In this document: in pieces, positions 5,641 to 31,421 of the stretch
Numbering within the stretch: position 1 is the stretch's first letter
How the letters are laid out: every line of letters starts with the position of its first letter
Assembly: GCA_037892935.1 (NCBI GenBank)
Contig: JAYXKI010000023.1
Location: 49,024 to 113,023, forward strand
Direction of reading: 5' to 3'
Origin: Phlebopus portentosus
Taxonomy: Eukaryota > Basidiomycota > Agaricomycetes > Boletales > Boletinellaceae
Length of the DNA stretch: 64,000 bases
Program-made: the position numbers and the translations under genes
Notes under the pieces: model-generated
What the model was told of the DNA's origin: nothing
The model's database searches: none
What the model saw: the letters and a program-made list of their open reading frames with translations, nothing else

Positions 5641-5689
5641 TGAACTACTATGATGTTATAACTCACTATCCATTAATAACTCAAAGGGA

Positions 5690-6790
5690 CTGATTTCCTG
5701 ATGAAGGACACCACAGTCAATGTAGATGCAGAAGGAGATATCAGCAGAAATAGAGTCCCTGCCAACAACAAAGACTCGGAAATCAGCAAAGTCTGCCAAC
5801 TGACAATCTACAAAGAGTTTAAGTTGATCTGCATTTGCTCACATCCTACTGTTCTAAAAGCAGGAACTACTGAAGGCCAGCATGGTGAGAATGCAACTCA
5901 TGAGTGATCATATCTGAAACCTAGTCCACCTTTATGCTGAATGGGACCCCTCCCAGGTGTAGGGTTCCACACATATCATATACAATACACATGTATATTT
6001 TCAGCTTCATATGCATATAGTCATATAAAATACACATGTATATTTGTATATTTTGTCTCTGAAGCAAGATATGCATATGCATGTATAATATACAGTGTAT
6101 ATAGCATATATGGAACTATACCGACTAATATAATATTTTGACCATCACATCTCTTGTTCGGGCCTCAAAATACTTATATGACATTCCTTAACTTAAGACA
6201 ACTAATATAAGTATTGATAAACCTACAAGCAGTAAGGTGGGAAATTGTGGGAACCACAACTGAAATTCCCATGCCTCAGTATGCAGCAACTAACTGTTGA
6301 TACCATGTCAAACCCGGTAATCAGGCCTTGAGACTGAGATCCAACTCTAAAGCTGCTTTGGTGAGTAGTTGCTCATTTTGGTAGAAGCAGAGCTGAGTTG
6401 ACTTTTATTGAAAATCCGAGTTTTCTTACTGGTTTCAGATGTTGAAAATATAAAATTTCCAAAACACATATATGCATATGAGTGTATAAATATGCACATA
6501 TATTTTGACTGCTCAAGCTGATATATATATGGGCATATAGCATATACACCATATCATATATGCTCTATACGATACGCTACAGAACCCTACCCAGGTGTGA
6601 TCAAACCATGTCGCGCTGTGAGGGCCACAGTAAGGAAAGGCAGTGCAAGCTATAGAACATCGACTCCAGATGATTCTGGAAGTAAGTGTTCAAGTCCAAT
6701 TACTGTCCCACTTGCTGATGAAGTCATGGCTCTAATCACAGAGCCATCGTTGAACAATGGCAAATCAAGTCTGCAAGTCCACAACATGAG
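5690..6790 (+). pseudogene. Array copy P: pseudogene of the left-arm family, split by a MITE
   Basis: Two pieces match array copies E to G. Piece 1 (5701-5907) reads DTTVNVDAEGDISRNRVPAN and ends ENATHE, matching exon 1 of F (DSTVNADMERDVDE ... TKATRE); the start motif and promoter palindrome are absent. The 5' splice site is ATGAGT where F has GTGAGA. Piece 2 (6598-6790) reads KPCRAVRATVRKGSASYRTS then TPDDSGSK, matching exon 2 of F (KPRRVRQATKRKDGSSRGTS), followed by LADEVM and ITEPSLNNGKSS matching the intron/exon 3 start of copy E. Between the pieces a 630-bp element is inserted directly after the intron-1 AG. Downstream the family sequence is replaced by an unrelated SNF2 fragment, so the 3' half is missing. 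Confidence 0.75.
5960..6589. mobile_element. hAT-like MITE, 630 bp, with 8-bp target-site duplication
   Basis: The element starts TAGGGTTC and ends GAACCCTA, an 8-bp perfect terminal inverted repeat, with weaker similarity continuing inward. It is flanked by CCCAGGTG at 5952-5959 and again at 6590-6597, an exact 8-bp duplication. Removing one flank restores the CTCCCAGGTG seen uninterrupted at the same spot in array copies F and G, which is direct evidence of insertion. The interior is AT-rich, repeats CATATG/ACATGTATAT words, and has no transposase. An 8-bp duplication with short TIRs is typical of the hAT superfamily; the family assignment is inference. Confidence 0.82.
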
Positions 6791-6792
6791 TC

Positions 6793-7116
6793 ATGAAGAA
6801 TGCTAGGGACAAAAACAGCCTCACTGAGGTTGCAACATCACTACTCAAACTCGAAGGAGAGAAGATCGATGTCATGCTTGACCGGGAGGCAGGCAAGACC
6901 AAAGTCCTCAGCGATAAAGACCTCGATGTGCTACTCAGTTGTTGCCCGAAAGTGTTCACAGTTAGGACCAAAGGCTGGTTCTGTGATGCAGATACTAAGG
7001 TCCAGAGAGTGCCTTTGGAAGATAAAGAAGATTCTGCTAAGATGAAGCCGAAAGCAGCATTCGCAGTATTCCAAGCTGCTACGAATGAGGGTAATGATGC
7101 GCTTGTGGCTGGGTAA
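6793..7116 (+). pseudogene. Fragment of a SNF2-family ATPase, resembling HELLS/Lsh/DDM1 C-terminus
   Basis: A 107-codon open stretch reads KNSLTEVATSLLKLEGEKID, then LSDKDLDVLLSCCPKVFTVR and KAAFAVFQAATNEGNDAL. This pattern (a LSDxDLDxLLxRSPxVF helix, a charged linker, then a FAVYEAxxDEGNxAL-like segment) recalls the region after the helicase core in fungal Lsh/HELLS-type remodelers, which help silence repeats. No helicase motif is present, so only a tail fragment exists. It is joined directly to the 3' side of copy P. The family name is from memory of the pattern and could be another SNF2 subfamily. Confidence 0.45.
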
Positions 7117-7764
7117 GGGTGTCTGAGCAGGGGATCAAACAAAGTATTCGAGCACACAGCTAGTTGATTCGTGAACTAAAGAAATACATGCTAGAGGCTT
7201 TCTATGTTTTAGGTAGTAAAGACGCAAGACATGTATATGAATTAGAATATTAACTGTGGTGGCCCAGAAAATGAGTTCCTTTTCTGTGCCACCATCATCT
7301 CTTTTACTGCGATTCTTGCTCTGTTTATGACACGCTTTCCTGGTTGGTAGAGAAGGATGGCATGCTGTTATGTATTTGTAAATTGATTCGAATTATTTTT
7401 GTACGTAGACATTCCATAGAATTAGCAAATAATAATGCATGGACTCTGGGACTCGTCGATCTCTAAGAATCCAATTCCATGAAAGTGAATACGCCCGAAA
7501 TCGAGCTCGAAGCATTGCAGGATGAGAAGTCTTAACGGCTTTGGCTCGCTCGCGTCTCCCACAATTTGACCAAATATCGTTCACTAGAGCCTATGTTAGT
7601 GACTATCATTTCAACGTGTCTGGTCTGATATCTGGGAATTTGGGTAGCGATGTCGGTCGCTCGAGCAGTGTTAGTTTTCAAGAGTAAAGGCATTCTAAGT
7701 AACAATTCAATTCGCTTTGCTGAGCAGCCATTGAATACCGGAGCGTGGCTCCTTGTCGAGCAAT
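7117..7764. other. Intergenic spacer before array copy A
   Basis: Six hundred and fifty bases with no ORF that resembles a known protein and no clear repeat. A stop-bounded minus-strand ORF at 7393-7584 has no supporting feature. Confidence 0.5.
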
Positions 7765-7800
7765 AACGTGACCACGTTTTTGATCACACGCTTTTAAATA
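7765..7800 (+). promoter_or_regulatory. Array promoter palindrome and TATA-like box, copy A
   Basis: GTGACC-N8-GATCAC forms an imperfect inverted repeat followed after a few bases by TTTTAAATAA. The same arrangement stands upstream of copies B to G at a similar distance (here about 95 bases before the ATG). Confidence 0.6.
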
Positions 7801-7883
7801 AAGACCATCTCAATCCACAACCCTGCATATCAAGGCTCACTGCTTCCTCTTCATCCATCCATACTTTAACTCTTCGAGTCAAC

Positions 7884-8851
7884 ATGGTCCTCACCAGAAG
7901 TATGGCGAAGCAGAGTGCCAGCAAGGGCGACAATGGCTCTAACAACTCTCCCGCTGATACTACCGATGCCTCAGTGAATACTGCATCCTGTAGAGACGCG
8001 GAGAGAGCCGTCGCGAACGATCGCGGCCTTATCCACATCAAGGTCTCGAAGGGTCACGACGCTCCCAAACCGCAAATCCCTCAAGGGCGCAGCTCCAGTG
8101 ATGCTCGTCCCTCTGCTGCTGTCCCAAAGACAACTGGGGCTCGTCGTGGTAGAAAGGCAAGCCGTGAGTATTCATATGAATCACCTACCCTCTTTTCATA
8201 CTGATGAAAGCTGAATCTCAGCCTCGCAAAAGCCACGACCCACGAAGAAGGTCGCGGATAAGACAGGTGGCTTGAAGCCAGTATCTGCCACTGACTCGAA
8301 CATTAAAGACATCAGTATGTCCTTTGCTGACCCGTTGCATTACTGAAGGTCTAATTCATGGAATAGCGGATCAACCTTCGGACATCCCTCCATTCAACCA
8401 AAGGGCGAAGAGACCAAGGGAGGACGAAGGCAACAAAGAAAATGAGGCCATTTCCGAACAAGAGCTATTCCTCTCGAATGCACGACGCATTCGGCAAAGA
8501 ATGACCAAGGCACCTATCGACGAGAACTCGGCAAAAGCGGCTGATGAATCGTCAAACACCGGCTCTTCGAGCATTGCTGATAATGCTGCCGAATCCTCCG
8601 ATGAGGCAATCGCTATCTCGGCGTTGCTCCAACTTTCGCCCGCAGAGAAGAGGATGGACACATTGGGAAGCTCGGCGCCGATATCGTTGGTGAATGATCG
8701 TTCTGCTTTGACTAGTCAGCGTACATCCTCGCCTAGTAAGCAAGAGACGATCTGGATCTTTAAGGGGATGAAGTTTAAGGGAATGAAACCCCCCGAGATC
8801 AAGTTATTTATGACGCTACTTGAGCTTTCGAAAACGGCCCTTTGTAAATAA
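7884..8851 (+). CDS. Array copy A: unrecognised basic, probably nuclear protein (285 aa)
   Basis: Proposed exons are 7884-8163, 8222-8314 and 8367-8851, both introns in phase 1 (GTGAGT..CAG and GTATGT..TAG); the join leaves a single 286-codon frame including the stop. Copies B, C, D and H have introns at the same places and phases. The protein starts MVLTRSMAK, the family start motif. Exon 2 carries the TGGLKPVS segment. Exon 3 has the basic module KRPREDEGNKENEA then NARRIRQRM, and a C-terminal helix-like AIAISALLQLS. Composition is Ser-, Glu- and Arg-rich with no signal peptide or membrane segment, so a disordered nuclear or nucleic-acid-associated protein is likely; that is inference. I do not recognise the family. 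Confidence 0.75.
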
Positions 8852-9014
8852 ACGCTCTTTCAAACCTCTGATCTACAATATCCTGCTAACACTCATCCAC
8901 TGAGCTCTTCGGCCTGTTCCGCTCGTACACAATAAGCATGTATACGTCTTTTGGTTTCGTTATTCCTTATAGCTTGGCCTTGTACGGTTTCCCTTCAGTA
9001 AACGAGATGTAGTT

Positions 9015-9055
9015 TGGCTCAGTGATCCTTCGAGATCGTTGTAGCACATCATATT
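9015..9055. promoter_or_regulatory. Conserved downstream block, copy A
   Basis: TTGGCTCAGTGATCC then TTCGAGATCGTTGTAGCAC lies 164 bases after the stop of copy A. Near-identical blocks follow D, E, F and G. On the plus strand AGTGATC and GATCGTT can pair around a CTTCGA loop; on the minus strand it reads YDVLQRSRRITEP without stops. Confidence 0.6.
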
Positions 9056-9199
9056 TGTCGAATGTGGGAATAGCGTAGCATTCGGCAGGGAGGGGAGAGA
9101 CATACCCTCCTTGTGTTTCGATGGCAGAGTTTACCGTGCATGTGAAATAAGGTAAGGTTGAATTGTTCGGATTTCCGAGCGTGGCTGCTTTTTGGAGGT

Positions 9200-9235
9200 A
9201 ACGTGATCGCGTTTTGGTCACGCACTATTTAAGAC
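9200..9235 (+). promoter_or_regulatory. Array promoter palindrome, copy B
   Basis: ACGTGATCGCG then TTTTGGTCACGC is the family inverted repeat (GTGATC-N7-GGTCAC), followed by TATTTAAGAC as a TATA-like box, about 115 bases before the ATG. Confidence 0.62.
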
Positions 9236-9347
9236 TTCGTTCAATCCACAAACTCCCAACAATTAACCACATCCACCCCGACATAAATCTCGCTACCAGG
9301 CGATCTCACTTCCCGTATTTCCATCCTCTTATTATCATCCAGTCGAC

Positions 9348-10286
9348 ATGATCCTTACAAGGAGGATGGCTAAGATAAAAGCAGAAGGCAGTGCCGATAG
9401 TGGCTCGAAGACATCTCCTCCTGATACCGTTACCTCCACAATGAATACTGCCATCTATAGAGACGTAGCAGGAGCTGTCGCAGAGGGCCGCGATCCTTCT
9501 GGCGTCAAGGACATGAAAGCCTGCGTGGCTCCAAACCAAAACGACCCTACAGAGGACAGCAACCATTGTTCTGTCACAGAAACGACTAAGGCCCGTCGTG
9601 GTCGTACCGCAGCTCGTGAGGACTCATTACTTTACCTATTCGATTTTGAGACCGACTGGAGCTGATTTCTAGCCTCGAGCAAATCAGGACGTGGCAAAAA
9701 AGCCATTGCGAAGGAAAGCGGCTTGAAGCCAGCATCCGTCGTGGAGTCAGCAACTGCTCCTGGTACGTCATTTCAGCTTCCATGTTAATCTGAAGGATCA
9801 ACATCTTCCACCTATACATTAGACTTTCCGTCACCCAGACAAGGCCAGAAGAGGCAGAAGGAAGAAGACAAAGGCAATAAAGAAAACGAATCTATGTCTG
9901 GGCAGCATCTACCTTCGACGAACGCCCGACGCATCCGTCGAAGGACTGCCAGAGCTGTCAGTGACGAGGCTGAAGCGACACCTCAAAACACGAACAGCTC
10001 GGTCGTTGTAAAGGATCTGTCGGGCTCTCGTTCCCTGCAGCGCGTCTCGTCACGTACCGAATATTCCGCAGATGAGGTCGTCGCCACCGCCGCCTTGTTA
10101 CAGTCTGCGAGTGGGAAGTTGAATCGATCCGCGAGCATGCTGCTGACATCCTCTGAGGTAGAGAGAAATTCTGTCCTACTCAGCGAAGCCACTCTGTCAC
10201 TGTGTAGTAGTCATGAATCGGAGCAGATCCTCAAGAGAATAGGTATTCCCGGAATCGAAGCAGTTATGACCCTGGTCGGAGCTTGA
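9348..10286 (+). CDS. Array copy B: unrecognised basic, probably nuclear protein (273 aa)
   Basis: Proposed exons are 9348-9615, 9673-9762 and 9823-10286, both introns phase 1, giving 274 codons including the stop. It begins MILTRRMAK. Exon 1 ends KARRGRTAAR, exon 2 contains ESGLKPAS, and exon 3 carries KRQKEEDKGNKENE then NARRIRRRTAR, followed by EVVATAALLQSASG. Layout and length are close to copy A, which lies 0.5 kb upstream on the same strand, so these two look like a tandem duplication. No conserved downstream block was found after this copy. Function is unknown. Confidence 0.75.
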
Positions 10287-11830
10287 GTTGCAGAGGGCCT
10301 GAAGCTGTCAGGCTTTTGGGTGGAGAATGGGCTAGCGCGACTGATGCCACCGAGATGTTCTCACAAAGCATCCAGGAGGCTCCGCAAGACACCTCGCTTT
10401 AACTTCCCTATCCTTTGGACGAAATAGTGAGCATAGGCACCATCCATTTCTTGGGCATCAGTCAACCGTTCACCTAAATAGCCATGACAACGTTCCTACT
10501 CCGCTAAAGCCTCTTCGATTGATTCTATTTAGCTCATTAGTTGCACGTACCAAGTAGCAGCTTTCCTTCGTTTTCTTGCGTGGCTTTGTACAATCACCTA
10601 TTCAATGAACAAATCATCAAATGACTCGACGGTCAATCACTATCGTTGTAGCGTTTCAAGGACATTCGGTTTACGATAAGGCCGAGGACAAATTGCCTTC
10701 CTGTAAACGACCAAAAAAAAAGTGAGTTGACGCGCGAAACAGGGATGTTAATGCGTTGTGCTTGAGTAGGATAAAGTGTAATATGACCAGAAATGTTGCC
10801 TACCTTCGATGGTTCCTAATCAGCTTGTCGCTTCGTGGTGGTGGTCATAGAGAGTAAAGTGACACTCTAGCGCTTTGTGAAAAGGGAAAAGGGACGGACG
10901 ATTATCACAATTCCACATTCTCCCACGCCATCCTAATCCTAGTGATGATCATTTCGATTTGCCGTTGATCTGCAGTGATCACTACTCAAAACACGGGGAT
11001 TACGTAGCATCTATACTTTCAATGAGCCCTCGATCGTTTGAAGTTTGAATTTGTAAACAACGATAAATGCAAGCGCTTGCCATTATGTATGTGTGATAAT
11101 AATATTTCCTACGAATCAATCTACAAAATTTGAATTATATCGCCGATAGAGCACAACTTGAAATCAGCAAATGAAAGAAGTACGTAATTTACATAAAGAG
11201 TCGAGAATCACTAGCGGGTATATCCTTCAGTTCCATTCGCTACATTCCATAACTCATATTCCTTTGACCGTTCCCCTGAGCTCGACAAGTAGTATGAGTG
11301 TAACGAGAACTGCAGATCCGGTTCCACATTCTAGCTCATGTCTGAAACGAGTGGTTGGGGAGTCGGGACAAACATATAACGAACGCGCAGATTTCGACGG
11401 CACTCGTCTCAAGGGAACGAGGAACATGAACAAAAAGACGCAGGTCCAAATGCTACAATTAGCATTTCGGTCACTTGTTGAATGAGAAAACCCCCCAACA
11501 GCATATAAGAAGCCCCCCGGGGCATCATCTCACAATCCGTCACTGAAGAATAGCCGCCCTTATGCAAAGCTGCTCGCCCATGGTTAACGCAAATTGACTG
11601 CATCCATACACGAGACCCATTTTCAGCTTAAGATGCCCATCTACCTTCTTCCATATAGCACATCGACATGCATCTTGCAAAATGCAATCTCTTGATAGCG
11701 AATAGCATTGTCAGAGGGCGTCGTCCCAGCCTCAAGAATAAAAACAACAGTTCAAACGAGTAAAAATATCAATATTAACATCCCCGCTTCGAAAAGGGAG
11801 GAATTTGAGACCGTGGCCGACTATCATAAG
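10287..11830. other. Spacer between array copies B and C
   Basis: About 1.5 kb with no recognisable gene. A 104-codon plus-strand ORF at 11171-11485 is rich in Ser and Thr but lacks the family motifs. The minus strand at about 10340-10470 has a short open stretch that does not match anything I know. Confidence 0.4.
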
Positions 11831-11831
11831 T

Positions 11832-11870
11832 AACGTGACCGCGTTTCGGCCACGCACTTTTCAGGGCCTT
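11832..11870 (+). promoter_or_regulatory. Array promoter palindrome, copy C
   Basis: AACGTGACCGCG then TTTCGGCCACGCAC matches the family element (GTGACC-N7-GGCCAC), about 130 bases before the ATG. The TATA-like box is weaker here (ACTTTTCAGGG). Confidence 0.6.
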
Positions 11871-11980
11871 GTTCAATCCTCCTAGCAATCAACCACACCC
11901 ACTTCGACTTCGAGACGTGTCACCCAAAGCACCCTATTCTCATATCCCCACATTGATCCATCTGCTATCACCGAGTCAAC

Positions 11981-12924
11981 ATGGTCCTGACGAGACGGAT
12001 GGTCAAGGAACGTGCGACAGGTAATACCAACGACGGACCCAACACTTCTAGTACCGGTCCTGCGATCCAAGTCAGTAATACCGTCTCTTCGATGTGCTCT
12101 GCCGCTGTCATCTATGGAGATGCGGTGGGAGCTAACGTTAACGGTCGTGCCTCTTCGCGCAGAGGAGGCACAAAGGCCAGCGGCGCTCCTAAACCACAAA
12201 TCTCCAGAGAGAACAACACCATCGACGCTCGGACACCGGCCGCAAGCCGCAGAGCAGGAGCAGCTAAGCGCAGTTCTAGACGCAGTTCTAGGCGCAAGCT
12301 AACCCGTGAGCAAGCATATCACTCGTTTAATTATGCTTCGTAAACCAACTGAAGTCGCATTTCAGCCTCAAAAACAGTCACCAAGCCGGGCGGCTTGAAC
12401 CTAGTCACATCCGCTTACTCACCAGATGAGAGTACTAGTACGCTCTTCTCAGCTGTTTGTTACTTTAAGGAAAACCTGACCGCCTTTCATTTCCAGACTC
12501 GCCGCCAGGGAAAAAGAGGCGGAGGGATGAAGGTGACAGTAATAAAGAGAATGCTGCTGTCGCCAGTCGAGATACTCCGTCGAAACGACGCGATGAGATT
12601 TCGACTAAGTCAGCGAACAAAAACCTGCCGGAAATTGTCGAGGCCCCGTCCAGTCGGAGATCATCGCGCCGAGCCTCCAGCAGCATGGAAACTTCTGACG
12701 ACGTAGTATTTGCCTATGAGCTGCTGAAGCTCTCGGGTCGAGGCAGAAATCAATTTGACGTGTCTCCAAGCCCTACGGCTGTCCTCTCACGCAGTCCCGA
12801 GAAGAAGAGCATATCTAACGGAATGACAGCGGTGGACAATGGAGTGGTTCGGAGACTGCTGGAGCTTTTCGATCTGAAGAAGGTTGAGGACAGGTCCGAG
12901 CAACCGGCGGTCGCGAACGCCTGA
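11981..12924 (+). CDS. Array copy C: unrecognised basic, probably nuclear protein (274 aa)
   Basis: Proposed exons are 11981-12305, 12366-12437 and 12497-12924, both introns phase 1, giving 275 codons including the stop. It starts MVLTRRMVK. Exon 1 ends in an Arg/Ser-rich run (RRSSRRKLTR). Exon 2 has KPGGLNLV. Exon 3 begins with the basic module KKRRRDEGDSNKENAA, as in A and B, but the ARRIRR core is replaced by RRSSRRASS. A helix-like DDVVFAYELLKLSGRG and a second VVRRLLELFDLKK follow near the C-terminus. The lost ARRIRR makes it the most diverged of the three short copies. Function is unknown. Confidence 0.72.
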
Positions 12925-14380
12925 TCATACTGTATCTATATCCGGCTCTCTTTCCTAACAGGCCGAACCGCGTCCTCTATAAAGAGGAAGGTTAGATGCT
13001 GCCGGCTGACCTATTGACCAGTACGAAGTTTCAACGAGACACGTTTCCTCCCACCACCAGCAGAGAGTTACTTGTATATACCATGGATGTTTGCTCCCCT
13101 TCACAATTCTTACCTGGATTTGCACAATCTACTGTGAACTAATGTAGCATCCATTGGCTCGGCGTTCCGCCGGGATTGCTGAACTGTATCATATGCGTTG
13201 ACTGTGCGATTAGCGTGGTGTCCTTCGGGACAAAGGCAAAGTCAAGTCTCATGCTCTGAAGTGAGAAGTACACTTCCGCGACTATGTCAGGTCATGAATT
13301 TGGAATAGGAACAAAAAGTGCTCACTTGTGGTGTTTCTTCATTGGGCACTTGACGGACGTAAAAATCAAGAAGAGAGGCCCATTCTTGGAGGCAAATCCA
13401 CGTCTCTCACGCCACCACTGGTATGGGTATGAATTGGCGATGATCGCCCTTTGATTTGCAGACGATCGGCTCTACCGCCACGGCTAGTGCTAGTCATGTG
13501 TAAGGATGCTGGAAATCTCAGATGGTTTCAGAGCCAATTAGATTCTCGTAGTATATTTTCTCGCGTCTTTCAATTTAGTGGATACATGTAAGAATTATCA
13601 CTGTGGACATTGATTTTGGTATTTCAATCAAGGTGCTCGCATCTATACATTTTCGACGAACTATATACCTTCTCCACCGAAGATGAAACTGTAGTCAATA
13701 CAATAGTACGCTACTGCGAGCTCGCTTCCTTCAAAAGCCCAGGAAGTATGCATTAGTCCTCTCGCGTGAATAATAAATGACGCCCGTCCCATTACAATAC
13801 TAGAAACAAGGTAATAGGTCTTGCACCAAGAAGATCCAGCCTATGCACCACTTGTCGCTCGGAGCAGAGTAGCCCTGAGATGGGATGAGGAGAGACAAAG
13901 CAATCTGTCTCGCTTCGACATTGTCAAATGCCACCGTGTGCAGTTTGAAAGCACGCAGAGGATCTTTCGCTGAGCTTTGACGGTTATGTCTAAGCAGTAA
14001 TCTTACAGAACTGGAAGATCTAAGAGACGGTTCCGTTTGACATCAAAATCCATAAAGCTGGACTTGATGGAAATTACCACTGGCACGCTTTCACCTGACG
14101 GCCGAAGCACTGCACTTGGCATTGCACGATGGGCCAAAATTCATTAGATACACTCTAAATATTAATGTAATGACATGCAGCGAGTTCCTTCTTCCAGCAT
14201 CTCTGGATTGGGGATACTTGTATGCCGGTGAGAGGAAGACCGAAGAATTGGGATGAAGAAATCCAGAAAGAACGATCACGTGCTTCACGTTTTCAACAAA
14301 GATAACGCGTTGTTGAAACAAAGAAGCGGAGCTTGAATTTGGCTTGGATACTTTGACCGTGGCTTGTTGTCGGTCAAAGA
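12925..14380. other. Spacer between copies C and D, with a possible minus-strand exon remnant
   Basis: Mostly non-coding. On the minus strand at about 13445-13160 two open stretches can be joined across a phase-0 GTGAGC..TTCAG intron into a reading with EWASLLDFYVRQVPNEETPQ followed by SMRLDFAFVPKDTTLIAQST and ending TPSQWMLH before a stop. It looks protein-like, but I do not recognise it and no upstream exon was found. It may be the tail of a dead gene. Confidence 0.3.
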
Positions 14381-14415
14381 ACGTGACCGTGCTTAGAGTC
14401 ACGTTCAAATAAAGG
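14381..14415 (+). promoter_or_regulatory. Array promoter palindrome, copy D
   Basis: ACGTGACCGTGC then TTAGAGTCACGT is the family inverted repeat (GTGACC-N8-AGTCAC), followed by CAAATAAAGGCC, about 140 bases before the ATG. A second GACCGTGGC / CGGTCAAAG pair lies just upstream at 14355-14378. Confidence 0.6.
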
Positions 14416-14546
14416 CCATGTTTTGCTGCAACCTCGTAGTATTTAACCACTATCAGTCCCTCGAAGCTCTCGACCCCAACGATTCAAAAGCCCTGCCTTT
14501 ACTTCTCTTCCGTCAATCTGTACCCATTGTCACCCAGCAGTTCAAA

Positions 14547-16158
14547 ATGGTCGTTACACGCTCCATGGCGAAGAAAGGCAACACCAAAAATAATGGCTCC
14601 AGTACATTCGCATCGTCCCGGGTACATTACAAGGCCCACAATACGGACGCTGTCGTCCCTGGAGACGTGGCGAGAGGAGCTGTTGACAACCGCGTCTCTA
14701 CGCGCAGCAAGGTCGCGAAGAGTAACAGTGCTCTTCACCATACAATCTCCGGAAAGGACAAGTCTGCACAGTCCTATCCTCGCACCAATGTCCCGAGTTT
14801 AACGACCACTTCGCGTCATGACAGTCAAAAGCCAACTCGTGAGCAATCATTTCCAACTGCCGCAGTTCTAATACTGAATAGCCGATCACAGGCACAAGAA
14901 AGCTGTCACGCTCAACCCAAGCCACGGTAAAGAAGCGTGGCTTGAAGTCCAAGGAAGACTCGGATGACTCCATTGACAAGTGTATAGGTGGGTACCTTTA
15001 CGTTTCGTCCATTTAAAAATTCTTACCATTCTCCGCTTCGACACATCAGCATCAACTACGTCGCCAACGGTAGTTGGCTCTGGCGAGGACGAATATAAAA
15101 AGGAAGATAATACTCGCCATCTGTCAACCCGAGGCGTGAAAAGAAAGAGTGATGATGAAGAGAATGCCCCTAAATTTGAACGCGGTCCCCGGGTGAACAC
15201 GAGGCGCATTCGCCGAAGACTGGAGACGCAGCCAGACGAAAAAGAGGCCCGCAAGGGACGAGTTGGGGTAATTCAAAAGAACGAAATTGATGACGGCCGC
15301 CCTACCGAGGGTCCAAGACGTTCTCCACGTCTAGCGGCCAAATCATCACTTTCGATACCCCAACAGGGCCGAAGAAGGTCAAACCGCTCTCGAAAGACGC
15401 AATGTCCTGAACACCCTCTGGCGAACGAGAGATCAGTGTCGAGGAAGCGAAAGCACGATGATGAACAGGCCGATGGCGTGATCGAAGCACCTGGCCCTTC
15501 GCGCCACGTGCGAAGACGTGCTTTGGAAGGATCTGACCGTGAAGGTGAACGTGAAGGCAAGAGCCCACCTGCTTCCGGAATCTCGACGGAGTCGCCGCAA
15601 GAGACCGTGGTCAACGACAAGTCAAACTCACCAAATACTTGCGGACCAGGAAGTGACGAAGAATCTTCCCTGCTGTCTTCTCTTCCTTTAAACGGGGATC
15701 TGGCCAGCGAACGATCAAGTCCGAGGGGACCCTCCCATAGACGTCACATGTCTATTGAGAGCGTCCCATCAGCGATTTGGTCGGAAGGAGTCAAGACCGA
15801 ACCACGAAGTCCATCCATCGAGTCTCTTATGACTCCTCCGCCGTACATAAAGGAGGAAGAGGAGGAGATCGTCCTTATCAACCAAGATCTGGACATGATG
15901 ATTCCTCTCGCTTCTCGGGATGCTGAAGAAGACGGAGCGGGGGCGGTACTCACGCACCTGCTACAGCTCGAAGACGAAGAACCTGGTGATGAGCAGTCAA
16001 TCGAAGCCGACGAGGACACTCACGACCACGTAGTCATGAATCGTTATCGGAGTCTGGCTCCTGAGCCGGATCAAGGCCTCGTAAACGCTATCCGATCGGG
16101 CGAAATCCCGGGTCTCGCTTCGCCTCCACCTTCAATGCACGAAGCGAGCTGCGCGTGA
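14547..16158 (+). CDS. Array copy D: enlarged family member (498 aa)
   Basis: Proposed exons are 14547-14838, 14892-14987 and 15050-16158, both introns phase 1, giving 499 codons including the stop. It starts MVVTRSMAKKGN. Exon 2 has KKRGLKSK. Exon 3 has KRKSDDEENAPKFE then NTRRIRRRLETQ, the family basic module, but continues into extra sequence absent from A to C: a second RRSPRLAAKSS/RRRSNRSRKT stretch, SRKRKHDDE, an acidic and Ser/Pro-rich middle, and EDGAGAVLTHLLQLEDEEP in the place of the ALLxLS helix. It is highly charged with no membrane segment. The repeated basic runs suggest nuclear localisation. It is almost twice the length of A to C. Function is unknown. Confidence 0.75.
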
Positions 16159-16470: not shown

Positions 16471-17320
16471 TGGAGGGTGTGATAGTGTCTCAGCGTCGTT
16501 TGGATCGAGGCAAGCGCGACTGTCGCGACATGGTCGTGCAAGAACACAGTCAAGCACCTCTTGCAAGCCGAAAGCTCCGTCGGTTTGTCGACCTGAAACA
16601 GAACGACATGGATATCCAGGATGATCGGTATGAGCCCTTTGACTTCCGTGTAGAGGGTGTCCTGAGATGAGTGTTGGTCGCACCTTTGTTTGACGGATCC
16701 AGAACTTCTCACGCCTCTGACGGAAACGATGAGGATAACGTGACCCATCTGTTTCGAACTCCGAGTGAAAGTCATGATCCCCCGATGCAAATTCCCTCAC
16801 AAAAATATGGTAAGTTATCTCGTCTGGGAAGAATGGACTCGAAAGAGTTATTTACTGAATAGAATACCCAGTAAGTTTCGGCTACCCGATTTCTTAAAAA
16901 GCCCTCAATTTCAATTTGTGCTCAAAGTCTGTACTATTCGAGCCTTGATCACCTTCAAGTCGGTACGGCCTGGTCTCTTCCTGGGTCCGGATGACAATGA
17001 AGGTATTTGTTTGTCCCATTTGATGTATGATTTGGACTACTGTTTGGTCGATGGACTAGCAGGATCTTCATAGAATGATCCGAGCGTCACGAACTTGAAA
17101 GTGTACCATGTTGTGCTTTTGAATTATTTATCCGGACAGTTTCGTGCTTGACCATATTGAACCCGACACAATTTGATCCTAAATAAACAAATTGTTCTTC
17201 TATCAAAAGATGCACATTAAATATTGAATGTAGAAACGACTAGCTATGGTCCTCTGAACCCGGGAGAGTCGTCGTGTTCTTACAAGCAGACTGAATCGTT
17301 GCCTGGACCTGAACAAAGAG
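16471..17320. other. Spacer between copies D and E
   Basis: No recognisable gene. Short ORFs at 16671-16862 and 16765-17073 lack family motifs and known domains. Confidence 0.4.
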
Positions 17321-17355
17321 CGTAACCGCCTTCCGGGTCACGCGTACTTAAGGCT
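17321..17355 (+). promoter_or_regulatory. Array promoter palindrome, copy E
   Basis: CGTAACCGCCTTCC then GGGTCACGCGTAC is a weaker family palindrome (GTAACC-N8-GGTCAC) followed by TACTTAAGGC, about 120 bases before the ATG. Confidence 0.55.
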
Positions 17356-17465: not shown

Positions 17466-18651
17466 ATGGGACTCATTATGCGCGCCATGGCGAAGAAACT
17501 CGCCGCAAACAACAGTGGCTCTGAGGTGTCCAAGAGCGTCACTGAGGATGAAGGACTCAATGTTGTCGATAGAAAGAATACCGCAGTCAATGTAGACATG
17601 GGGAGAGATGTCAATGGAAACCGCGTCTCTGCTAACGGAGGAGACATGGAAGCCAACGAAGCTCTCAACCCCAAAATCCACATAGAAAGCGAGCCAATCC
17701 ACACTCGCCCGTCTCGTTCTACCAAGCCAGAATCGAGTATTACCACGCATCGTCGTGGTAAAAAGGCAACTCATAAGTATTATTGTCTGAATCTTAGTCC
17801 GCTTTTATATCTAACGGAACCCTCGCATGCTCGACCAAAGCACGACATCCTGCACAAGCCGGTGCGACCCAGCGTAGATCGAATCATGAACCATCAATGC
17901 TGGTAGTATCTAGACGTGAGTGACATGCCATTGCATGCTCCATTCGTTGATGAAGTCGTGATTCTACAGTAGTTACAAAGCCATTGTCGGGCAAGGGCAA
18001 ATCAAATACATGGGTTCGCAGCACGAACAATAACGGCGGCACACTGAAAGACACTGGAATAGCCGCGATAGAACGAAAACGGGGAAGAGAAGAGACATAC
18101 GTCGCAGATTCACAAACGGTCGAAGGCACTAGTCCAAACGCACGGCGAATCCGCCGAAAAGTCGCAACCATCAATGAAGCATCTTCACATGGATCCAACC
18201 TCCGGGATGCCATTAATTCGTGCCGCAAAGCAAAGGCCGATGGCGGCCTTTCTATGCTGGGACAGTATGGTGCAAAGCCCAAGCCTGCTGATATGCGTGG
18301 TTTCGACAGCCTTCTCCGCTTGGGTATAGTATCCTCAGGGTATCTTCAAGAGGAAAAGGAAAATGAGCCAGCTGCACAGGGTTCAGCAAGAAGTCTCATG
18401 CAGCGCGCTCATCACAAAGACAAGTCCTTCAATGGGCAGATCTATGAGGCATGTGCTATCATGGCGCTATCTACGCCGCGACTTTTCGTTGGTGTTCAGC
18501 ACAAGTCTCCAATCCGATGGGGAGAGAAGCGAGGGCTGCTCTAGAGCCAGGCGACTTCGCATTTCTGTTTCGCCGAGCTACTCCATATGCCTTCGAAGAG
18601 TCCGACATGCGCAATTCCGCCAAAACTAGTCGAAGAAGTGAAGAGCGATGA
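17466..18651 (+). CDS. Array copy E: family member with altered intron-1 splice sites
   Basis: It starts MGLIMRAMAKKLAANNSGSE, close to F. Exon 1 runs to about 17775. The F donor (CTC|GTGAGA) is CTC|ATAAGT here, and the F acceptor CCCAG is CGCAT, so exon 2 must be spliced differently or read through to a stop at 17906. Later exons are well supported: exon 3 17970-18491 has KRGREETYVADSQT, NARRIRRKVATI and EACAIMALSTPRLF; a 53-nt phase-1 intron (18492-18544) leads to exon 4, which ends with PGDFAFLFRRATPYAFEES, the C-terminal motif shared with F and G. An alternative intron 1 (GTATTA at about 17777 to GCGTAG at about 17877) would keep the frame but is unproven. The copy may be a functional variant or early in decay. 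Confidence 0.6.
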
Positions 18652-18855: not shown

Positions 18856-19031
18856 CGTAGTAGGCGAGAATCGTGAGCCCCCAAAACTTTGGCGACGCAA
18901 GATAGAGCGACATAGGCAAACAAGATGCGGTGAGCAGATCCGTCGAAATTTTTGAGAGTGCGAACAGACGTGCCTGTAATTATCTTGACAGGCGAGTTGC
19001 GAATTGAATCGTGGCCCGGTGCTGGATAGGT

Positions 19032-19075
19032 AACGTGACCGCGTTCAAGTCACGTACTATCCCTCTATTTAAGGC
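19032..19075 (+). promoter_or_regulatory. Array promoter palindrome, copy F
   Basis: AACGTGACCGCGTTC then AAGTCACGTAC gives GTGACC-N7-AGTCAC, followed by CTATTTAAGGCC as a TATA-like box, about 145 bases before the ATG. The 40 bases upstream (GTGGCCCGGTGCTGGATAGG) are identical before copy G, marking a recent duplication. Confidence 0.65.
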
Positions 19076-19198: not shown

Positions 19199-20517
19199 AT
19201 GGGACTCATTACGCGCGCCATGGCGAAGAAACTCGCCGCTAACAATTGTGGCTCTGAAGCCTGCGGGACCGTCACTGCGGAAGTACCACGCACTGATACC
19301 GACGCAAAGGACTCCACTGTCAATGCAGACATGGAGAGAGATGTCGATGAAATCTGCATCTCTGCAAATAACAGAGGCGCAGAGAGCAATGAGGTTCTCA
19401 TTCCCAAAATCTTCATAGAGAGCGAGTCGATCGCTACTCGCACGCCTCCATCTACTGACCCAAAATCGGGAACCGTTAAACGTGGTCGCGGTACGAAGGC
19501 AACTCGTGAGAATTCATATCTGAAACTCGGTCCTCTTTTATACTGAACGGGACTTCTCCCAGGTGCGACCAAGCCACGTCGCGTTAGACAAGCCACCAAG
19601 AGGAAAGATGGCTCAAGTCGTGGAACATCAATTCCAGATGTTTTTGGAAGTGAGTGACCAAATCTGATACCTGTCTCGTTAGCTAATGAACCATCAGACA
19701 TGATTGCAGAGATTCCGCCGGACCATGTTCCATCTGGGGCTGAAATACGCAATGCAACGCATAACAACGGTGCCTCGCAAAACACCAGCGTAGTAGCAGC
19801 CGGCCAAAAGAGAAGAAGGGAAGAGACGAGCGAAGCAGATTCGCAAACGGATCGTGATATTGTTTCGGCGCGTACTACACCACGGCGCATCCGTCGGAAC
19901 ACCCGCCACAGCACATTTGTCGACGGGGCGCCTTCAGTTGCACGCAACCTCCGGGACTCCACCAACTCGAGCCCCGAAACAAAGGCAAATGACGTCCTAA
20001 ACTTGCCTGCAAGCCAGTACGGTGCAGAACACAGATCTGACGAGATACCTATTCGCAACAGTGTTTCCGGCCCCGCTGAAGTCTGTTCGGGACAGTCTCC
20101 GAGGGAAAAGGAAAATGTGCCTGCAGCACGTTTAACGTCAAGCCCCCTACAGCGCTCTCGTCGCAAGGGCACGTGCTCCGAAACAGAATTCGTTTTGGCA
20201 CGGGCTATGCTAGCACTGTCCAAACCACGGATTTTCTCTGGACTCCAGGATAACTCCGGGCCCAACGGGGGAGGAACGAGACTCACTTTCCACACGAAAA
20301 TCCGTTCAAATCTTTCCTGTCCACCGAGCATAACGACGGCGCAACGGCTCTGCCCTTGCCAGATCTCCCCGATGAGGCCGTCCAGGCTCGAACATGGGAG
20401 GCTCCACGACTGGATCCAGATGACTTCGCATTTCTGATTCGCCGAGCAACGCCGTATAGATTCGAAGAATCGAATATGCGGAATGAGGCATTTACCAGAC
20501 CGACGCCACAAGAGTGA
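19199..20517 (+). CDS. Array copy F: unrecognised family member (384 aa)
   Basis: Proposed exons are 19199-19505, 19563-19649, 19698-20303 and 20363-20517; all three introns are phase 1, giving 385 codons including the stop. The last intron (GTTCAA..GCCAG, 59 nt) was placed by comparison with G and E, which have 54- and 53-nt introns with the same phase. It starts MGLITRAMAKKLAANNCGSE. Exon 2 has KPRRVRQATKRKDGSSRG. Exon 3 has KRRREETSEADSQTD, TPRRIRRNTRHS and FVLARAMLALSKPRIF. Exon 4 ends LDPDDFAFLIRRATPYRFEE. It has no signal peptide or membrane segment. The unit (about 19.0-20.9 kb) is the intact sister of pseudogene G. Function is unknown. Confidence 0.73.
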
Positions 20518-20868: not shown

Positions 20869-21049
20869 GCGATGATCCGTAAGCCCCAAAGTTTTGATGA
20901 CGCAAAACCGAGCGACATAGGCAAATAGAACGCAGTGATTAGGTCCGTCGAAGTCTGGGAAAGTGCGAGCAGACGTACCCGAAGATTATCTTGACTTATA
21001 CCAAGCAGGCGAGTCGCGATTTGAATCGTGGCCCGGTGCTGGATAGGTA

Positions 21050-21085
21050 ATGTGACCGCGTCCAAGTCACATACTATTTAAGGCC
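21050..21085 (+). promoter_or_regulatory. Array promoter palindrome, copy G
   Basis: AATGTGACCGCGTCC then AAGTCACATAC gives GTGACC-N7-AGTCAC, with CTATTTAAGGCC next. The core is intact although the gene is broken. Confidence 0.6.
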
Positions 21086-21206: not shown

Positions 21207-22508
21207 ATAGGACTCATTACGCGAGCCATGGCGAAAAACCCCATCGTCTGCAATGGTGACTCCGAAGCCTCCGGGACCGTCGCTGCGGAAGTACGACGTA
21301 CTGGTACTGTCGCCAATGGGAAGGACTCCGCCGTCAATGTAGACACGGAAAGAGATGAACGCTGCATCTCTGCAAATGACAGGGGCGCAGAGAGCAATGA
21401 GGTTCTCAATCCTAAAATCCACAAAAAGAGAGCGAGTCGATCGCTACTCGCACGCCTCCATCTACGGACCCGAAATCGGGAACCATTGGACGTGATCATG
21501 GTACGAAGGCAACTCGTGAGCATTCATATATGAAACTCAGTTCCTTTTTATACTGAACGGGACTCCTCCCGGGTGCAACCAAGCCACGTCGCGTTAGACA
21601 AGCCACCAAGAGGAAAGGTGGCTCAAGTCGTGGAACATCGACTCCAGATGTTTCTGGAAGTGAGTGATCGAATCTGATACCTGTCTCGTTAGCTAATGAG
21701 CCACTGGACATGATCGCAGAGATTCCGCCGGACCATGTTCCATCGGGGACTGGAGTACACAATGCAACGTATAACAACGGTACCTCGCAAGACACCAGCG
21801 TAGTAGCAGCCGGCCAAAAGAGAAGAAGAGAAGAGACGAGCGATGCAGATTCGCATACGGGTCGTGATAATGTCTCGAAACATCCAACGTACAACTATCG
21901 GCGAAGCGCCTTCGGTCGAGTGCAACCTCCGGAACTCCACCAACTCGAGCTCTGAAGTAAAAGCAAATGATGGCCTTGATTTGCCTGCGACCCAATACGG
22001 CGCAGAACATAGACCTGACGAGACATCTAATCTCAACAGTGTTCCCGGCCTCGTTCCAGTCTGCTGTAGACATTCTCAAGGGCAAAAGGAAAATGCGCCC
22101 GCAGAACGTTCGGTGTCAAGTCCACCACAGCGCTCTCATCGTAAGGGCACGTGCTCCGCAAGCGAAGTCGTCGGGGCACGGGCTATTCTGGCACTATCCA
22201 AGCCGCGAGTTTTCTCTAAACCTGAGCATAATCTCGAACCGCGCAAGGGGAGCAACGGAGTGCACTCCCAGACAGAAACATCGCACGCAAGTTCGTTTGA
22301 GCTTTCTCTGTCCAACGAGTGAATCTGCGCTCCGTCCTTGCCAGGTGACCATGCCGAGGATGTCGAGGCAGAAACAACTCCAACATGGGAGGCGCGAGAA
22401 CTAGATCCGGATGACTTCGTGTTCCTGGTTCGCCGAGCAACGCTGTATAGATTTGAGGAATCGAATACGCGGAATGAGGCATTTACCAGACCGACGTCAG
22501 AAGAATGA
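21207..22508 (+). pseudogene. Array copy G: pseudogene, sister of F
   Basis: It aligns with F along its whole length. Lesions seen by direct comparison: (1) the start ATG of F is ATA at 21207, leaving only an internal ATG at 21228; (2) two extra bases near 21423 shift exon 1, so the end of exon 1 reads out of frame; (3) a 32-base deletion at about 21880-21895 removes the TPRRIRR core and shifts the frame again. Exon 2, the KRRREETSDADSHT block, VVGARAILALSKPRVF and the final LDPDDFVFLVRRATLYRFEE are still readable, and the last 54-nt phase-1 intron is intact. The lesions look recent because the rest is close to F. Confidence 0.78.
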
Positions 22509-22654
22509 TGCACAGCACTGTACCTTATACGCGCCATCTGCTGTTGTTTCTGTCCCCTTTGTGCTTATCTCGCCAATTTTAGCTTTCTGTTTACTTTGTG
22601 TACCACCGTACCTCGCATTTTCCCAGTACCTCAGATGAAATAAACGGATCGTTT

Positions 22655-25512: not shown

Positions 25513-25688
25513 ACTTCGAATGTGATTTCTTTCTCGCATCCTGATAGATCTAAGAGATCTTGCAAAACAACGAGCTCGGTAGGGATGCCGGAACTACGCG
25601 GTAATCAATGTAAGGTGAAGCAACGAGCTTGTTGAACAGTCATGTTTATTGAAATCCATTACACAGTACTATTCGAGTTGATGTTTAT

Positions 25689-27841: not shown

Positions 27842-28470
27842 ATAGCATCTCTCGATTCTCCCCACATTCAATTTGTATAGATCTCGGTCGCAGAATGAGC
27901 TGGGAATGATATCCGCGATATCCGCATGAGATAGGTGCGAACGGCGAGAAAAAAAAAGGATTATAGTGCTATTTGCGTACCAGCATGTGAAAAAGGACTC
28001 ATGATGTTCATGGCTGGATGAGTCTGCCCGATGGCTGAAGGGTAAGGAAAAAAGTCGTCAGCCGTAAGGACAGCATTTAAGTTCCTCCGGTTCTTGGCGC
28101 GTCTTTGTGGCTTGCGTCCGGTACCGGAGCGCGAGTCATGACGATGGCCTTTTCTACGTCGGTAATAACCGGTGGGCACCCTCTCGAGTCTCAAGCCACG
28201 TCTTAAACGAATGTAGACGTGCTTGGCATTGATGCAGAGAACGAAGCTCATGAAAAAAAGGCCGAGGAAAAAAAAGTATGCTAGACATGGCTCACGAACA
28301 CGAAACAGAACAAAAAACTTGGCAAAAGTCTGCTTATATAAGACGTCGAGGCAGACGCGTATATGTTACACACTTCCCCAAAAAGCGAATAAAAAGGAAT
28401 TACCGAAATGAGAACAAACGACCCTTGCGCTGTAAGCAAGTGCATACCAAAAAGAGTCCGTGGCCAGGTA
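27842..28470. other. Divergent spacer between the kinase and array copy H
   Basis: It carries the promoters of both genes. A minus-strand open stretch at 27961-28251 ends close to a GTACGC donor-like site and might be an upstream kinase exon, but no consistent splice phase was found. Confidence 0.35.
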
Positions 28471-28473
28471 GAT

Positions 28474-28486
28474 CACGTGACCGCGT
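28474..28486 (+). promoter_or_regulatory. Array promoter half-site, copy H
   Basis: CACGTGACCGCGT matches the left half of the family palindrome; the right GGTCAC half is not present. It lies about 215 bases before the ATG. Here it also makes a CACGTG E-box. Confidence 0.45.
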
Positions 28487-28699
28487 CCCTTCAAAAAGGA
28501 CGGGCGAAACGGCCAAAGCGCAATCCACGCAACTCGCAACTTCGTTGTATTCGACCACGACTACGAACAACATCGCTGAACTGCTTACTTCCCGTAGTCC
28601 CCGACGCTTCCCGCTTCTACTACTCCCATTCGCATCTCTTAATCACCCCCCACCTTTCACATACATACACCTAGTAGCACCGCTGCTGTAGCGAAAGAG

Positions 28700-31421
28700 A
28701 TGGTCGCGACTAGACAGATGACAAAAGCCCGTGCAGCCAAGCAGGGTGGCTCCAACCCGGCTGTCCGCGAGCTCGCCCAGGCCGGGGCTTCTAAGACTGT
28801 CGGCCCATCCACAAGCACTGTTGCCCGCCGGTGCACAAAACGAGGCGCTGCGAACAATCACACTTCTGTTCAAGGCGAGGGCGGCAGTGTTTCTACACTG
28901 CACGACGTGAAAGAAGACGAGGAATCTGCTTCCACGGCTTCTGTCTCCAACTCCAAAGGCAAGAAGGGTGAGTACTCAACTTCACGATTCGTCCCGATTG
29001 GAGACTGAAGAGCATATCAGGAGGCTCAGCTCGATCGTCGGGTACAGTCCAGGCCACAACCACAACCACAACCACACAGACGTGTGGCTTATATCTTGAA
29101 GTCAAGATTGAACACATCTCCGCTTCGGTAAGCGGACATTCCGGTAGGTATCTTCAACGAACGTCTCCTTCATCTCGCTCATCGAAACATGCTCGACAGG
29201 CGCATCTCCAACCCCTCCCCAGCCGCCTAAGAAGACCGGGCCACGAAAGGCTCGCGGCACCAAGAAGGCTCCCGCAAAGGGCGGGAAGCCCAAAGCAAAC
29301 ACCAAAAGGGGCAAAGCCGCTGAGAAGACGGGCGCAGTGCCAGAGAACGAGACGGTCGTGACGGGCTCCAAACGCCGCCGGCGCGAAGATGCGGACGATG
29401 AAGACGAGGGTCGGCCAGAGACCTCGCGGCAAGGTGCGCGAAGGACTCGTCGCAAGATAGGGCCTCCTGCAGACCAGGATGACGAGCCCCCCGTCGTAAG
29501 ACAAACGCGCAGTCGTAAAGCTGCTGCTGGCGTCTCCTCCCGTCCTGAGCCTCCGAAACCCCGCGCTTCTCGAAGGAAGGCTCAGGCGGGTCGCGCTGAG
29601 CCTGCGTCACGAAAGTCTCAAGCGACCAAAAAGGAGGTCTCGTCGCATGACGATATTACCGAGGCGGGGGAAAAAGTGCGAAGGAATAAAGGAAAGGGCA
29701 AGGCGGTCGACTTACCTTCCACAGAGGTTGCTTCGGTAGGCTCGAAGCGGAGACGCGACGAGGAGGATGTCGACGTCGAAGACGTTACGCATCCGCCGGT
29801 GGACCCTGGTCCGTCCCGACGTACGACTCGTCGTACGAGGCAAAAAGTCGAAGGGCCGGTAAAGTCTGAGACTTCAATGGAAGTCGCCAGACCGAGGCGA
29901 AGGACTACGAAGACGAAGGCTGCTAATAAAGGAAAGGGTAAGGCGAAGGATGAGACACCTGAGCCTACTGAACCAAAGCGCGAGTCTCCCGAGTATGAAG
30001 AGCGGTCTGGACAGCGTTCTCCAGGAGCAACAAATCCGGTGCTCGTTAAACGAGAATCGCAATATTCTTCGCCAGTCCCTCCCAAAGAAGAATCGCTCCC
30101 GAGCTCGCACACCGATGTCTCCTCGACTGAGGAGTGCAAGAAAGAGGAGCCTCCATCCTCACCGCTGCGACTGCTCCTCACGGCGATGGAATATCCAGAA
30201 AACGGTCCGATCGCGCTACTAGAGACGCATGCATCTCCGCGAACCGAGCTCCCTCCGAGACTCCGAAGTGGCGCTCCTCCGTCTCCAATAATGCCCCAAC
30301 TCGAGTCTCCGGCACCGACGTTGACGCTGAAACCAGAGGAGTCGATGCTCATTCTAGCGCCGAGACGCGTTCTTCCCGAGTCCGCGATACGGGGGACCTA
30401 CAACGGGGACGATGAAGAAACACACGGCTCCCGCTCCCGCTCGCCATCTCCGAGCGAAGCAGACGACGATGACGATGACGACAACAGCAGCAACGACAGC
30501 CTAAGCGCCGTCATCCCGGCATGGTCCAGGTTCATCTCGTCTTGTCGAAAAGCGTGTGCCAACATGGGCTCCTTCGCAGCTTCTTCTCTGGCACAACAGC
30601 GCTCTGGAGGTCCCGGGGCGCCCACGCGGACATCTACAAGCGCAGTGCCGAAGAGCGGGGCGCGAGTGGTTGCTGCTAATTGCGTTTCGTCCGTGACTCC
30701 GGGCGCCAGGAGTGAGAAGGACGAGAGAAGCCCGACTTCGTCATCCGAGGTGTCTGAGATGCTGGGCGGTGATGCCAGGTCGGACAGCGAGGACGACGAG
30801 ACGTCGCCTTGTCGTACCAGCGGGGCCTTAAGAGATGTACCTCATAGGAGCCTTACGTGTCCGTCCCCGCCATCTTGCAGATCGCTGACTACTCTACCTG
30901 CGTCCCCCGAACAGCGGAACGCAGGAAGCTCGAGCATGGCACTCGTCCCGTACAAGGGTTTCGAAATTGAGACTGATCATGAGACTCCGAGAGCCGGACC
31001 GTCGCGGCTACCCGAGCGCACGCCCTCGCCCTCACCATCCGATGTATCATTCCCGAGCGACAGCTTCGGGTTGCACTCGGACGACGAGATTGAGATCGAG
31101 TGGACGGGCGGGCCCGAGCCTGCCCCGGAGCCGCCAACGCCTCCGCCCATCCGGGCGGCTCGATTTCAGATCGCTCCTCGGTCAACGCCGCCATCGCCGT
31201 CAAAACCATCAGCGGGACCCTCGGAGCGCGACAATCGCGAGGAAGATCACGACCGCATCTTCAACACTGAGGACGAAGTGCCCCCGGAGCTCAAAAAGGC
31301 ATACCGATTCGCGAGGTCTACTCCGTTCAGTTATCTGCGCGGTGGCGTTAGAGAAAAGACCTTGCTGAGTTTGCAAAAGTCGGTATTTGGACTCGACCGC
31401 CGACTGACGGTTGAGCGCTAG
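28700..31421 (+). CDS. Array copy H: largest family member (870 aa)
   Basis: Proposed exons are 28700-28967, 29021-29143 and 29200-31421, both introns phase 1, giving 871 codons including the stop, the same layout as A to D. It starts MVATRQMTKARAAKQGG. Exon 2 has a Thr-rich run from an ACAACC repeat. Exon 3 opens with a Lys/Ala-rich, histone-H1-like stretch, then carries the basic module twice: GSKRRRREDADDEDE with ARRTRRKIGP, and GSKRRRDEEDVDVED with TTRRTRQKVEG. The rest is acidic and Ser/Pro-rich, with a run of about ten Asp. Near the C-terminus are KKAYRFARSTPFSYLR and LLSLQKSVFGL. GC content is higher than in the other copies. It is probably a disordered nuclear protein; function is unknown. 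It may be the ancestral or least decayed member. Confidence 0.75.

What the first reader, a model, noticed from the sequence alone, without database searches (positions are those of the whole stretch)
5690..31421. One-direction array of nine paralogs of an unrecognised gene family
Seen in sequence: nine units on the plus strand (P, A-H) share MxxTRxMAK or MGLIxRAMAK starts, phase-1 introns at matching places, a KRxRE...ARRIRR-type basic module and a C-terminal LLxLS or SKPR(I/V)F segment. Lengths run from 273 to 870 aa. I recognise no known domain. The mix of intact, altered and dead copies points to fast birth and death, as seen in genes under conflict or in lineage-specific regulators.
Basis: partly seen in the sequence, partly recalled or inferred. 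Interest (0 to 1): 0.85.

Follow-up and report, generated by a model that had tools for sequence, protein, structure and literature searches.

The report
Mushroom gene array sharing one promoter
A medicinal bracket fungus (Sanghuangporus) carries about thirty copies, dead ones included, of a gene family seen so far only in its genus; the copies encode floppy proteins with nuclear-type signals and nearly all share one unusual promoter, and they seem to be gained and lost quickly.

Summary
Nine plus-strand units (P, A-H) are real paralogs with one three-exon plan and phase-1 introns. The window is the end of a 113 kb contig of a Sanghuangporus genome. No Pfam family passed its cut-off, and every database homolog retrieved is an unnamed Sanghuangporus protein; in four other genomes the homologs share a contig and lie within 27 locus-tag numbers. 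A, B, C, D and H are open; E, F and G are damaged; P is a remnant. More copies lie on contigs C12 and C19: about 31 units in all.

New here: nearly every unit has the same promoter module 118-225 bp before its start (CGTGGC, then ACGTGACCGCGT, usually a facing GTCACG). A genome-wide search for the first two parts found 18 places, 17 of them at family units, including a probable divergent copy (C12:1345 kb) that the protein searches had not listed.

The proteins look disordered, with nuclear-type basic clusters. Two subfamilies keep a KEN box (6 of 6 and 14 of 15); the D/H branch lacks it and has psi-K-x-E motifs. Best reading, not shown: co-regulated nuclear proteins, the KEN branch made and destroyed with the cell cycle through APC/C. 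Conflict-driven evolution is neither shown nor excluded.

The parts
5690..6721 (+). P: type-2 remnant, two homologous stretches about 630 bp apart; no promoter module found (best score 10 of 18)
7744..7804 (+). promoter module of A (core 7766)
7884..8851 (+). A: type 1, exons 7884-8163, 8222-8314, 8367-8851; 285 aa; KEN
9180..9235 (+). promoter module of B (core 9201)
9348..10286 (+). B: type 1, exons 9348-9615, 9673-9762, 9823-10286; 273 aa; KEN
11812..11869 (+). promoter module of C (core 11833)
11981..12924 (+). C: type 1, exons 11981-12305, 12366-12437, 12497-12924; 274 aa; KEN
14358..14416 (+). promoter module of D (core 14381)
14547..16158 (+). D: exons 14547-14838, 14892-14987, 15050-16158; 498 aa; two basic modules, psi-K-x-E sites, no KEN; related to the C19 array
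17297..17355 (+). promoter module of E (worn, score 15)
17466..18650 (+). E: type 2, damaged (intron-1 donor GT absent; C-terminal block out of frame)
19010..19074 (+). promoter module of F (core 19033, score 18)
19199..20437 (+). F: type 2, exons 19199-19505, 19563-19649, 19710-20437; 373 aa open frame that leaves the frame of the conserved C-terminal block; KEN
21027..21084 (+). promoter module of G (core 21050)
21207..22511 (+). G: type 2, damaged (ATA at the start site, frame break, stop)
28459..28496 (+). promoter module of H (CGTGGC and ACGTGACCGCGT only; third site absent)
28700..31421 (+). H: exons 28700-28967, 29021-29143, 29200-31421; 870 aa; two basic modules, psi-K-x-E sites, no KEN; single copy in the genome search

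Best explanation
The array is part of a Sanghuangporus multigene family of about 31 units (remnants included) that looks like one regulon. SHOWN: a shared three-exon plan; a shared promoter module that in this genome marks family members almost exclusively; proteins of low complexity and low fold confidence with basic clusters; homologs clustered on one contig in four other Sanghuangporus genomes; gain and loss of copies. INFERRED: a common transcription factor binds the CGTGRC sites and switches the family on together; the proteins enter the nucleus and contact chromatin or other nuclear partners through the KRxRE...RRIRRR modules and short helices; the KEN branch (A, B, C, X1-X3 and the E/F/G type) is removed by APC/C late in mitosis or in G1, while the D/H branch, which lacks KEN, is stable and tuned through psi-K-x-E (SUMO-type) sites. 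On this reading it is a cell-cycle-timed, dosage-tolerant set of nuclear accessory proteins that duplicates and decays freely.
For: Promoter: 20 of 20 units score 14-18 of 18 at -118 to -225; the best score in 400 background pieces of 600 bp was 14 (12 of 400). In a two-strand scan of 163 kb, 18 of 19 sites scoring 15 or more lie just upstream of family units. Genome-wide GTGGCN{13,23}ACGTGACCG has 18 places, 17 at family units (reversed-pattern control 6), one of them a probable member not listed by the protein searches. The 22-base core with at most one mismatch: 12 of 12 family. Two D-like copies found by protein search (C12:302 kb, last C19 copy) have it too. KEN: 6 of 6 non-redundant type 1 and 14 of 15 type 2, shuffle means 0.34 and 1.11; it is the only run of three invariant residues in the type-1 alignment. 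[ST]Px[KR] sites: 7 against 2.8 in type 1, reached by 11 of 300 shuffles. psi-K-x-E in H: 23 against 5.6. Fold confidence: mean pLDDT 40.7 and 36.7. Clustering in other genomes.
Against: No expression, localisation or degradation data. KEN is three letters; with 19 invariant of 214 gapless columns one invariant triplet is not rare in itself. D-boxes are at or below shuffle level, CDK-type sites are not enriched in type 2 (14 against 12.2) and psi-K-x-E is not enriched in types 1 and 2. KEN sits at different places in types 1 and 2. The module consensus was taken from the same upstreams that were then scored, and many units are recent duplicates, so one search is partly circular. H and the 1345 kb copy lack the third site; E has a worn first site; P has no module. 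Shared descent could explain the module: its mean identity is 63%, against 30% for nearby upstream DNA and 40% for intron 2, but intron 1 is also alike (54%), and the module was picked for similarity. Low pLDDT on 15- and 4-sequence alignments is weak proof of disorder.
Confidence: 0.35

Rival explanations
1. Conflict family: the proteins are parts of a nuclear or meiotic conflict (drivers, suppressors or incompatibility factors), and turnover is driven by an arms race.
For: Genus restriction, tandem arrays, different copy numbers per genome and several dead copies; possible inversion at the locus.
Against: No recent pair has dN/dS above 1; no linkage to STE3 or homeodomain genes; no known toxin, transmembrane or HET domain matched in the pieces scanned; H is kept in all four genomes where it was retrieved.
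Confidence: 0.15
2. Slack duplicates: the proteins have little present function; tandem duplication carries gene and promoter together, and resemblance is mostly descent with relaxed constraint.
For: dN/dS 0.43-0.84; damaged E, F, G, P and B-like C12 copies; the copies lie in segmental duplications; module similarity could be inherited.
Against: Reading frames stay open in A-D, H, X1-X3 and most C19 copies; KEN and the promoter outlast divergence in which the older paralogs are saturated (dS above 1); H and X1 orthologs persist across species.
Confidence: 0.3
3. Transcription co-regulators: the D/H branch activates transcription through acidic motifs (for example DLDMMIPL in D, DFDAMIPL in the C19 copies), the smaller copies are dominant-negative forms, and KEN is incidental.
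For: psi-K-x-E excess in H and a phosphorylation-type psiKxExxSP in 3 of 3 D copies; conserved acidic stretches.
Against: No DNA-binding domain was found; the activator reading of the acidic motif is from recall and by eye.
Confidence: 0.15

Closest known systems
APC/C substrates and pseudosubstrate inhibitors with a KEN box (securins, Acm1, Mes1)
   Same: Small, disorder-like, fast-evolving proteins with KEN and basic stretches (comparison from recall; one search gave a listing and abstract starts only)
   Different: No homology was tested or found; D-box not enriched; many tandem copies in one genome; binding untested
Lineage-specific gene clusters of fungi, for example in Neurospora (PMC10684091; listing and abstract start seen)
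   Same: Genus-restricted, clustered genes of unknown function
   Different: Here a single paralogous family with its own promoter signature; HET-domain neighbours were not looked for systematically
wtf driver family of fission yeast (from recall)
   Same: Lineage-restricted multi-copy family with introns and many dead members
   Different: wtf proteins are membrane proteins with poison and antidote forms; nothing of that kind was recognised here, and no crosses were possible

Membership tests
APC/C KEN-box substrates | conserved KEN motif | tested here: met
   6 of 6 non-redundant type 1 and 14 of 15 type 2; absent in 3 of 3 D and 5 of 5 H, so met for part of the family only
APC/C KEN-box substrates | a cooperating D-box | tested here: not met
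   D-box pattern below shuffle expectation in types 1 and 2 (1 against 2.2; 4 against 9.9)
APC/C KEN-box substrates | APC/C-dependent degradation | not testable with these tools
   needs an experiment
Known Pfam family or transposon protein | match above the curated cut-off | tested here: not met
   family pieces; best sub-threshold match SAP25, E 0.06
Mating-type locus genes | linkage to STE3 or homeodomain genes | tested here: not met
   STE3 on C9 and C6, Homeobox_KN on C14 and C1; none on C12, C19 or C23
Meiotic driver family | segregation distortion or spore killing | not testable with these tools
   needs crosses

The most novel reading that the evidence does not exclude
A genus-specific nuclear regulon: about thirty paralogs under one dedicated promoter code, split into a KEN branch (timed destruction) and a SUMO-type branch (stable) that compete for the same partner; an accessory cell-cycle or nuclear-identity system that is confined to Sanghuangporus and still turning over.
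Probability: 0.15. Interest if true: 0.75.

Novelty: new variant of a known kind. Interest (0 to 1): 0.55.

Why it matters
It gives a defined gene family, not described in the papers my searches listed, with a promoter signature that finds its own members, in a cultivated medicinal genus with an estimated crown age of about 15 million years (PMC8537844, passages seen). It makes a general question testable: whether young orphan families become wired into the cell cycle by gaining a degron and a common promoter.

Tried and rejected
Mating-type locus: STE3 and homeodomain genes lie on other contigs. Classical cell-cycle promoter boxes: ACGCGT was present in 5 of 18 upstreams (D, D-prime, D12, E, H) and the other boxes in 3 or fewer, so not general. 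Relatives outside the genus through the C-terminus of H: 3 hits, all Sanghuangporus. PDB by the type-2 profile: none. The structure models have low confidence, so I made no fold search. The psiKxExxSP motif is in 3 of 3 D but 0 of 5 H. Promoter-core matches with three mismatches are mostly noise: all rows 55, control 51. Orthologs of A, B, C and X2 in other species were not retrieved, but the one profile search that held them was capped at 7994 candidates, and D was never searched there, so absence is not shown. Literature: searches listed 19 of 19, 12 of 9,256 and 12 of 778 papers; none listed describes this family by title or abstract start. Beyond listings I saw only passages of PMC8537844, PMC12001456 and PMC12858565.
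Full report
Where it is. The window is bases 49024-113023 of a 113,023-base contig (C23) in an unnamed 38.4 Mb, 23-contig genome. H is 95% identical to a Sanghuangporus sanghuang protein, and the C12 copy X1 is 95% identical to a protein filed as S. baumii, so the genome is a Sanghuangporus; the species is not settled. Reading frames, a start-motif scan, a self-comparison and splice modelling confirm nine plus-strand units.

Gene plan. With no phase rule, the best models of A, B, C, D, F and H (6 of the 8 units modelled; E and G are damaged) have two phase-1 introns around a short exon 2 of 72-123 bases (phases and lengths are my arithmetic on its coordinates). Later scripts demanded phase 1. 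Annotated proteins of other genomes have matching lengths (H 842-916 aa; X1 277-303 aa). I split the family into type 1 (A, B, C, and X1-X3 on C12), type 2 (E, F, G and 15 database proteins), and the larger D and H. Shared are the N-terminus (TR.M[ATV][KR]) and a basic-acidic-basic module KRxRE...RRIRR; D and H appear to have two such modules (by eye). In type 2 the conserved islands include the N-terminus, KRxREE, the KEN segment, KGTCS..EF..A..LALS and LDPDDFAFLVRR...RFEES. AlphaFold gives helices at residues 6-15, 275-288 and 358-368 of the type-2 protein, at the first and the last two of these islands, in an otherwise low-confidence chain (mean pLDDT 40.7). H has mean pLDDT 36.7 with several helices.

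The wider family. C12:1396-1425 kb holds a second block: X1, X2, X3, two A-like, two B-like, one C and one D copy and a type-2 remnant. C23:1-12 kb holds another C and another D copy. C19:386-426 kb holds eight D-like copies, one with a stop in the matched stretch, and C12:301-303 kb one D-like copy with a stop and, by eye, a changed start region. C12:1345 kb holds a probable divergent copy. Together with the nine window units that is about 31 (10 + 2 + 8 + 1 + 1 + 9), remnants included; genome searches give lower bounds. One B-like C12 copy has a broken frame and NKK in place of KEN; the other keeps KEN but has a shortened N-terminus. C23:1-924 repeats C12:1425212-1424291 inverted at 99.35%. 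I therefore think C12 and C23 belong to one locus, but haplotig, inversion and misjoin cannot be told apart here.

Distribution. The profile search (X1, X2, A, B, C, F) found 18 proteins, all Sanghuangporus: three X1 orthologs and 15 type-2 proteins. With H, the hits of each of four assemblies report one contig length: tags 9588-9609 (S. vaninii), 1845-1871 (S. weigelae), 2643-2660 (S. baumii) and 1719-1728 (S. sanghuang). I assume that tags run in order. Type-2 counts are 3, 4, 5 and 2, plus one double-length protein in a fifth genome. Two searches with H found only Sanghuangporus. The method needs shared five-residue words and two of the three searches hit a candidate cap (7992 and 7994), so distant relatives may be missed.

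Promoter. Upstream k-mers pointed to CGTGAC: it is in 8 of 8 representatives (6-mer shuffles reached at most 7), CGTGACC is in 8 of 8 (shuffles at most 5) and ACGTGACC in 6 of 8 (shuffles at most 3; 100 shuffles each). The module is CGTGGC, a spacer, ACGTGACCGCGT, 3-7 bases, GTCACG, then often an A/T-rich box. Twenty of 20 units scored 14-18 of 18. The C12:302 kb copy and the last C19 copy score 15; the second B-like C12 copy 17, the C12 type-2 remnant 14, and P only 10. For G the printed distance starts 12 bases before its ATA. Across the genome, the inverted pair CGTGACN{8,12}GTCACG has 26 sites, 14 at family units (control 11); this search exposed the C19 array. The 22-base core gave 12 places with at most one mismatch, all family; 7 with two, 4 of them family; 36 with three, 2 of them at family promoters (control 51 in all against 55). 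The three two-mismatch places outside the family (C6, C7, C14) lack the upstream CGTGGC, and no family gene was seen in the 1.3-1.7 kb read after them. The exact pattern GTGGCN{13,23}ACGTGACCG has 18 places: 8 on C19, 5 on C23, 3 in the C12 block, C12:1345 kb and C8 (control 6). No family gene was seen after the C8 site in 1.6 kb. The C12:1345 kb site is about 174 bp before a reading frame that starts MVFTRSM and is followed by a frame with KRHRDES...CRRVRQKS; I call it a probable member. About half of the known units are not hit by this exact pattern because they differ by a base or more. Mean pairwise identity of the module among A, B, C, D, F, X1 and X2 is 63%, against 30% for upstream DNA further out, 42% for the 60 bases before ATG, 54% for intron 1 and 40% for intron 2. 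The module was chosen for similarity, so this comparison favours it.

Sequence signals. KEN is in 10 of 10 type-1 models (6 of 6 non-redundant) and 14 of 15 type-2 proteins (P0010 lacks it), in 0 of 3 D and 0 of 5 H. The three X1 orthologs and the frames of damaged E, F and G also read KEN. psi-K-x-E is in excess in H (23 against 5.6, 0 of 300 shuffles) and in D (6 against 2.6, 12 of 300), not in types 1 and 2; the C19 last exons examined (3 of 8) have one each. What KEN and psi-K-x-E do elsewhere is general knowledge that I recall, not a result.

Evolution. Ten recent copy pairs have dN/dS 0.43-0.84 with few changes each; the seven older pairs have dS above 1 or saturated. E, F and G show different lesions, while S. 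vaninii, S. weigelae and S. baumii have longer type-2 proteins annotated. Copies come and go under weak purifying selection; positive selection is not shown.

Verdict. The mechanism is inference; the conflict reading stays open.

Noticed in passing
window 25689-28057, minus strand: FunK1-type fungal kinase frames between G and H (PF17667, E 1.5e-33); DNA at and beyond its 3' end (25149-25729) recurs inverted at 62172-62771 (70-89% identity).
   Followed up: no
window 49-933: Argonaute gene fragment (ArgoL2 and Piwi) at the left edge of the window.
   Followed up: no
window 39866-42868, minus strand: Long reading frame with a ThrE domain (PF06738).
   Followed up: no
L044 2920-3430 (C19:389.0-389.5 kb): Possible small gene with a hydrophobic stretch between two C19 copies; whether it is co-duplicated was not checked.
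   Followed up: no
C23:1-924 and C12:1424291-1425212: Inverted 99.35% match at the edge of array copies: inversion, haplotig or misjoin.
   Followed up: partly
window 5064-5652: A/T-rich direct repeats just before remnant P.
   Followed up: no
C6:421604, C7:1782628, C15:1203519: Three near-identical 22-base inverted repeats CGTGACC(A/G)TT(G/A)CCTTGGTCACG outside the family; perhaps another repeat class.
   Followed up: no
L048 (C14:141 kb) and L049 (C12:301 kb): By eye, the two stretches share translated words (NPANQRRAFQFCFLY) near the second intron of the C12:302 kb copy; perhaps a mobile repeat.
   Followed up: no
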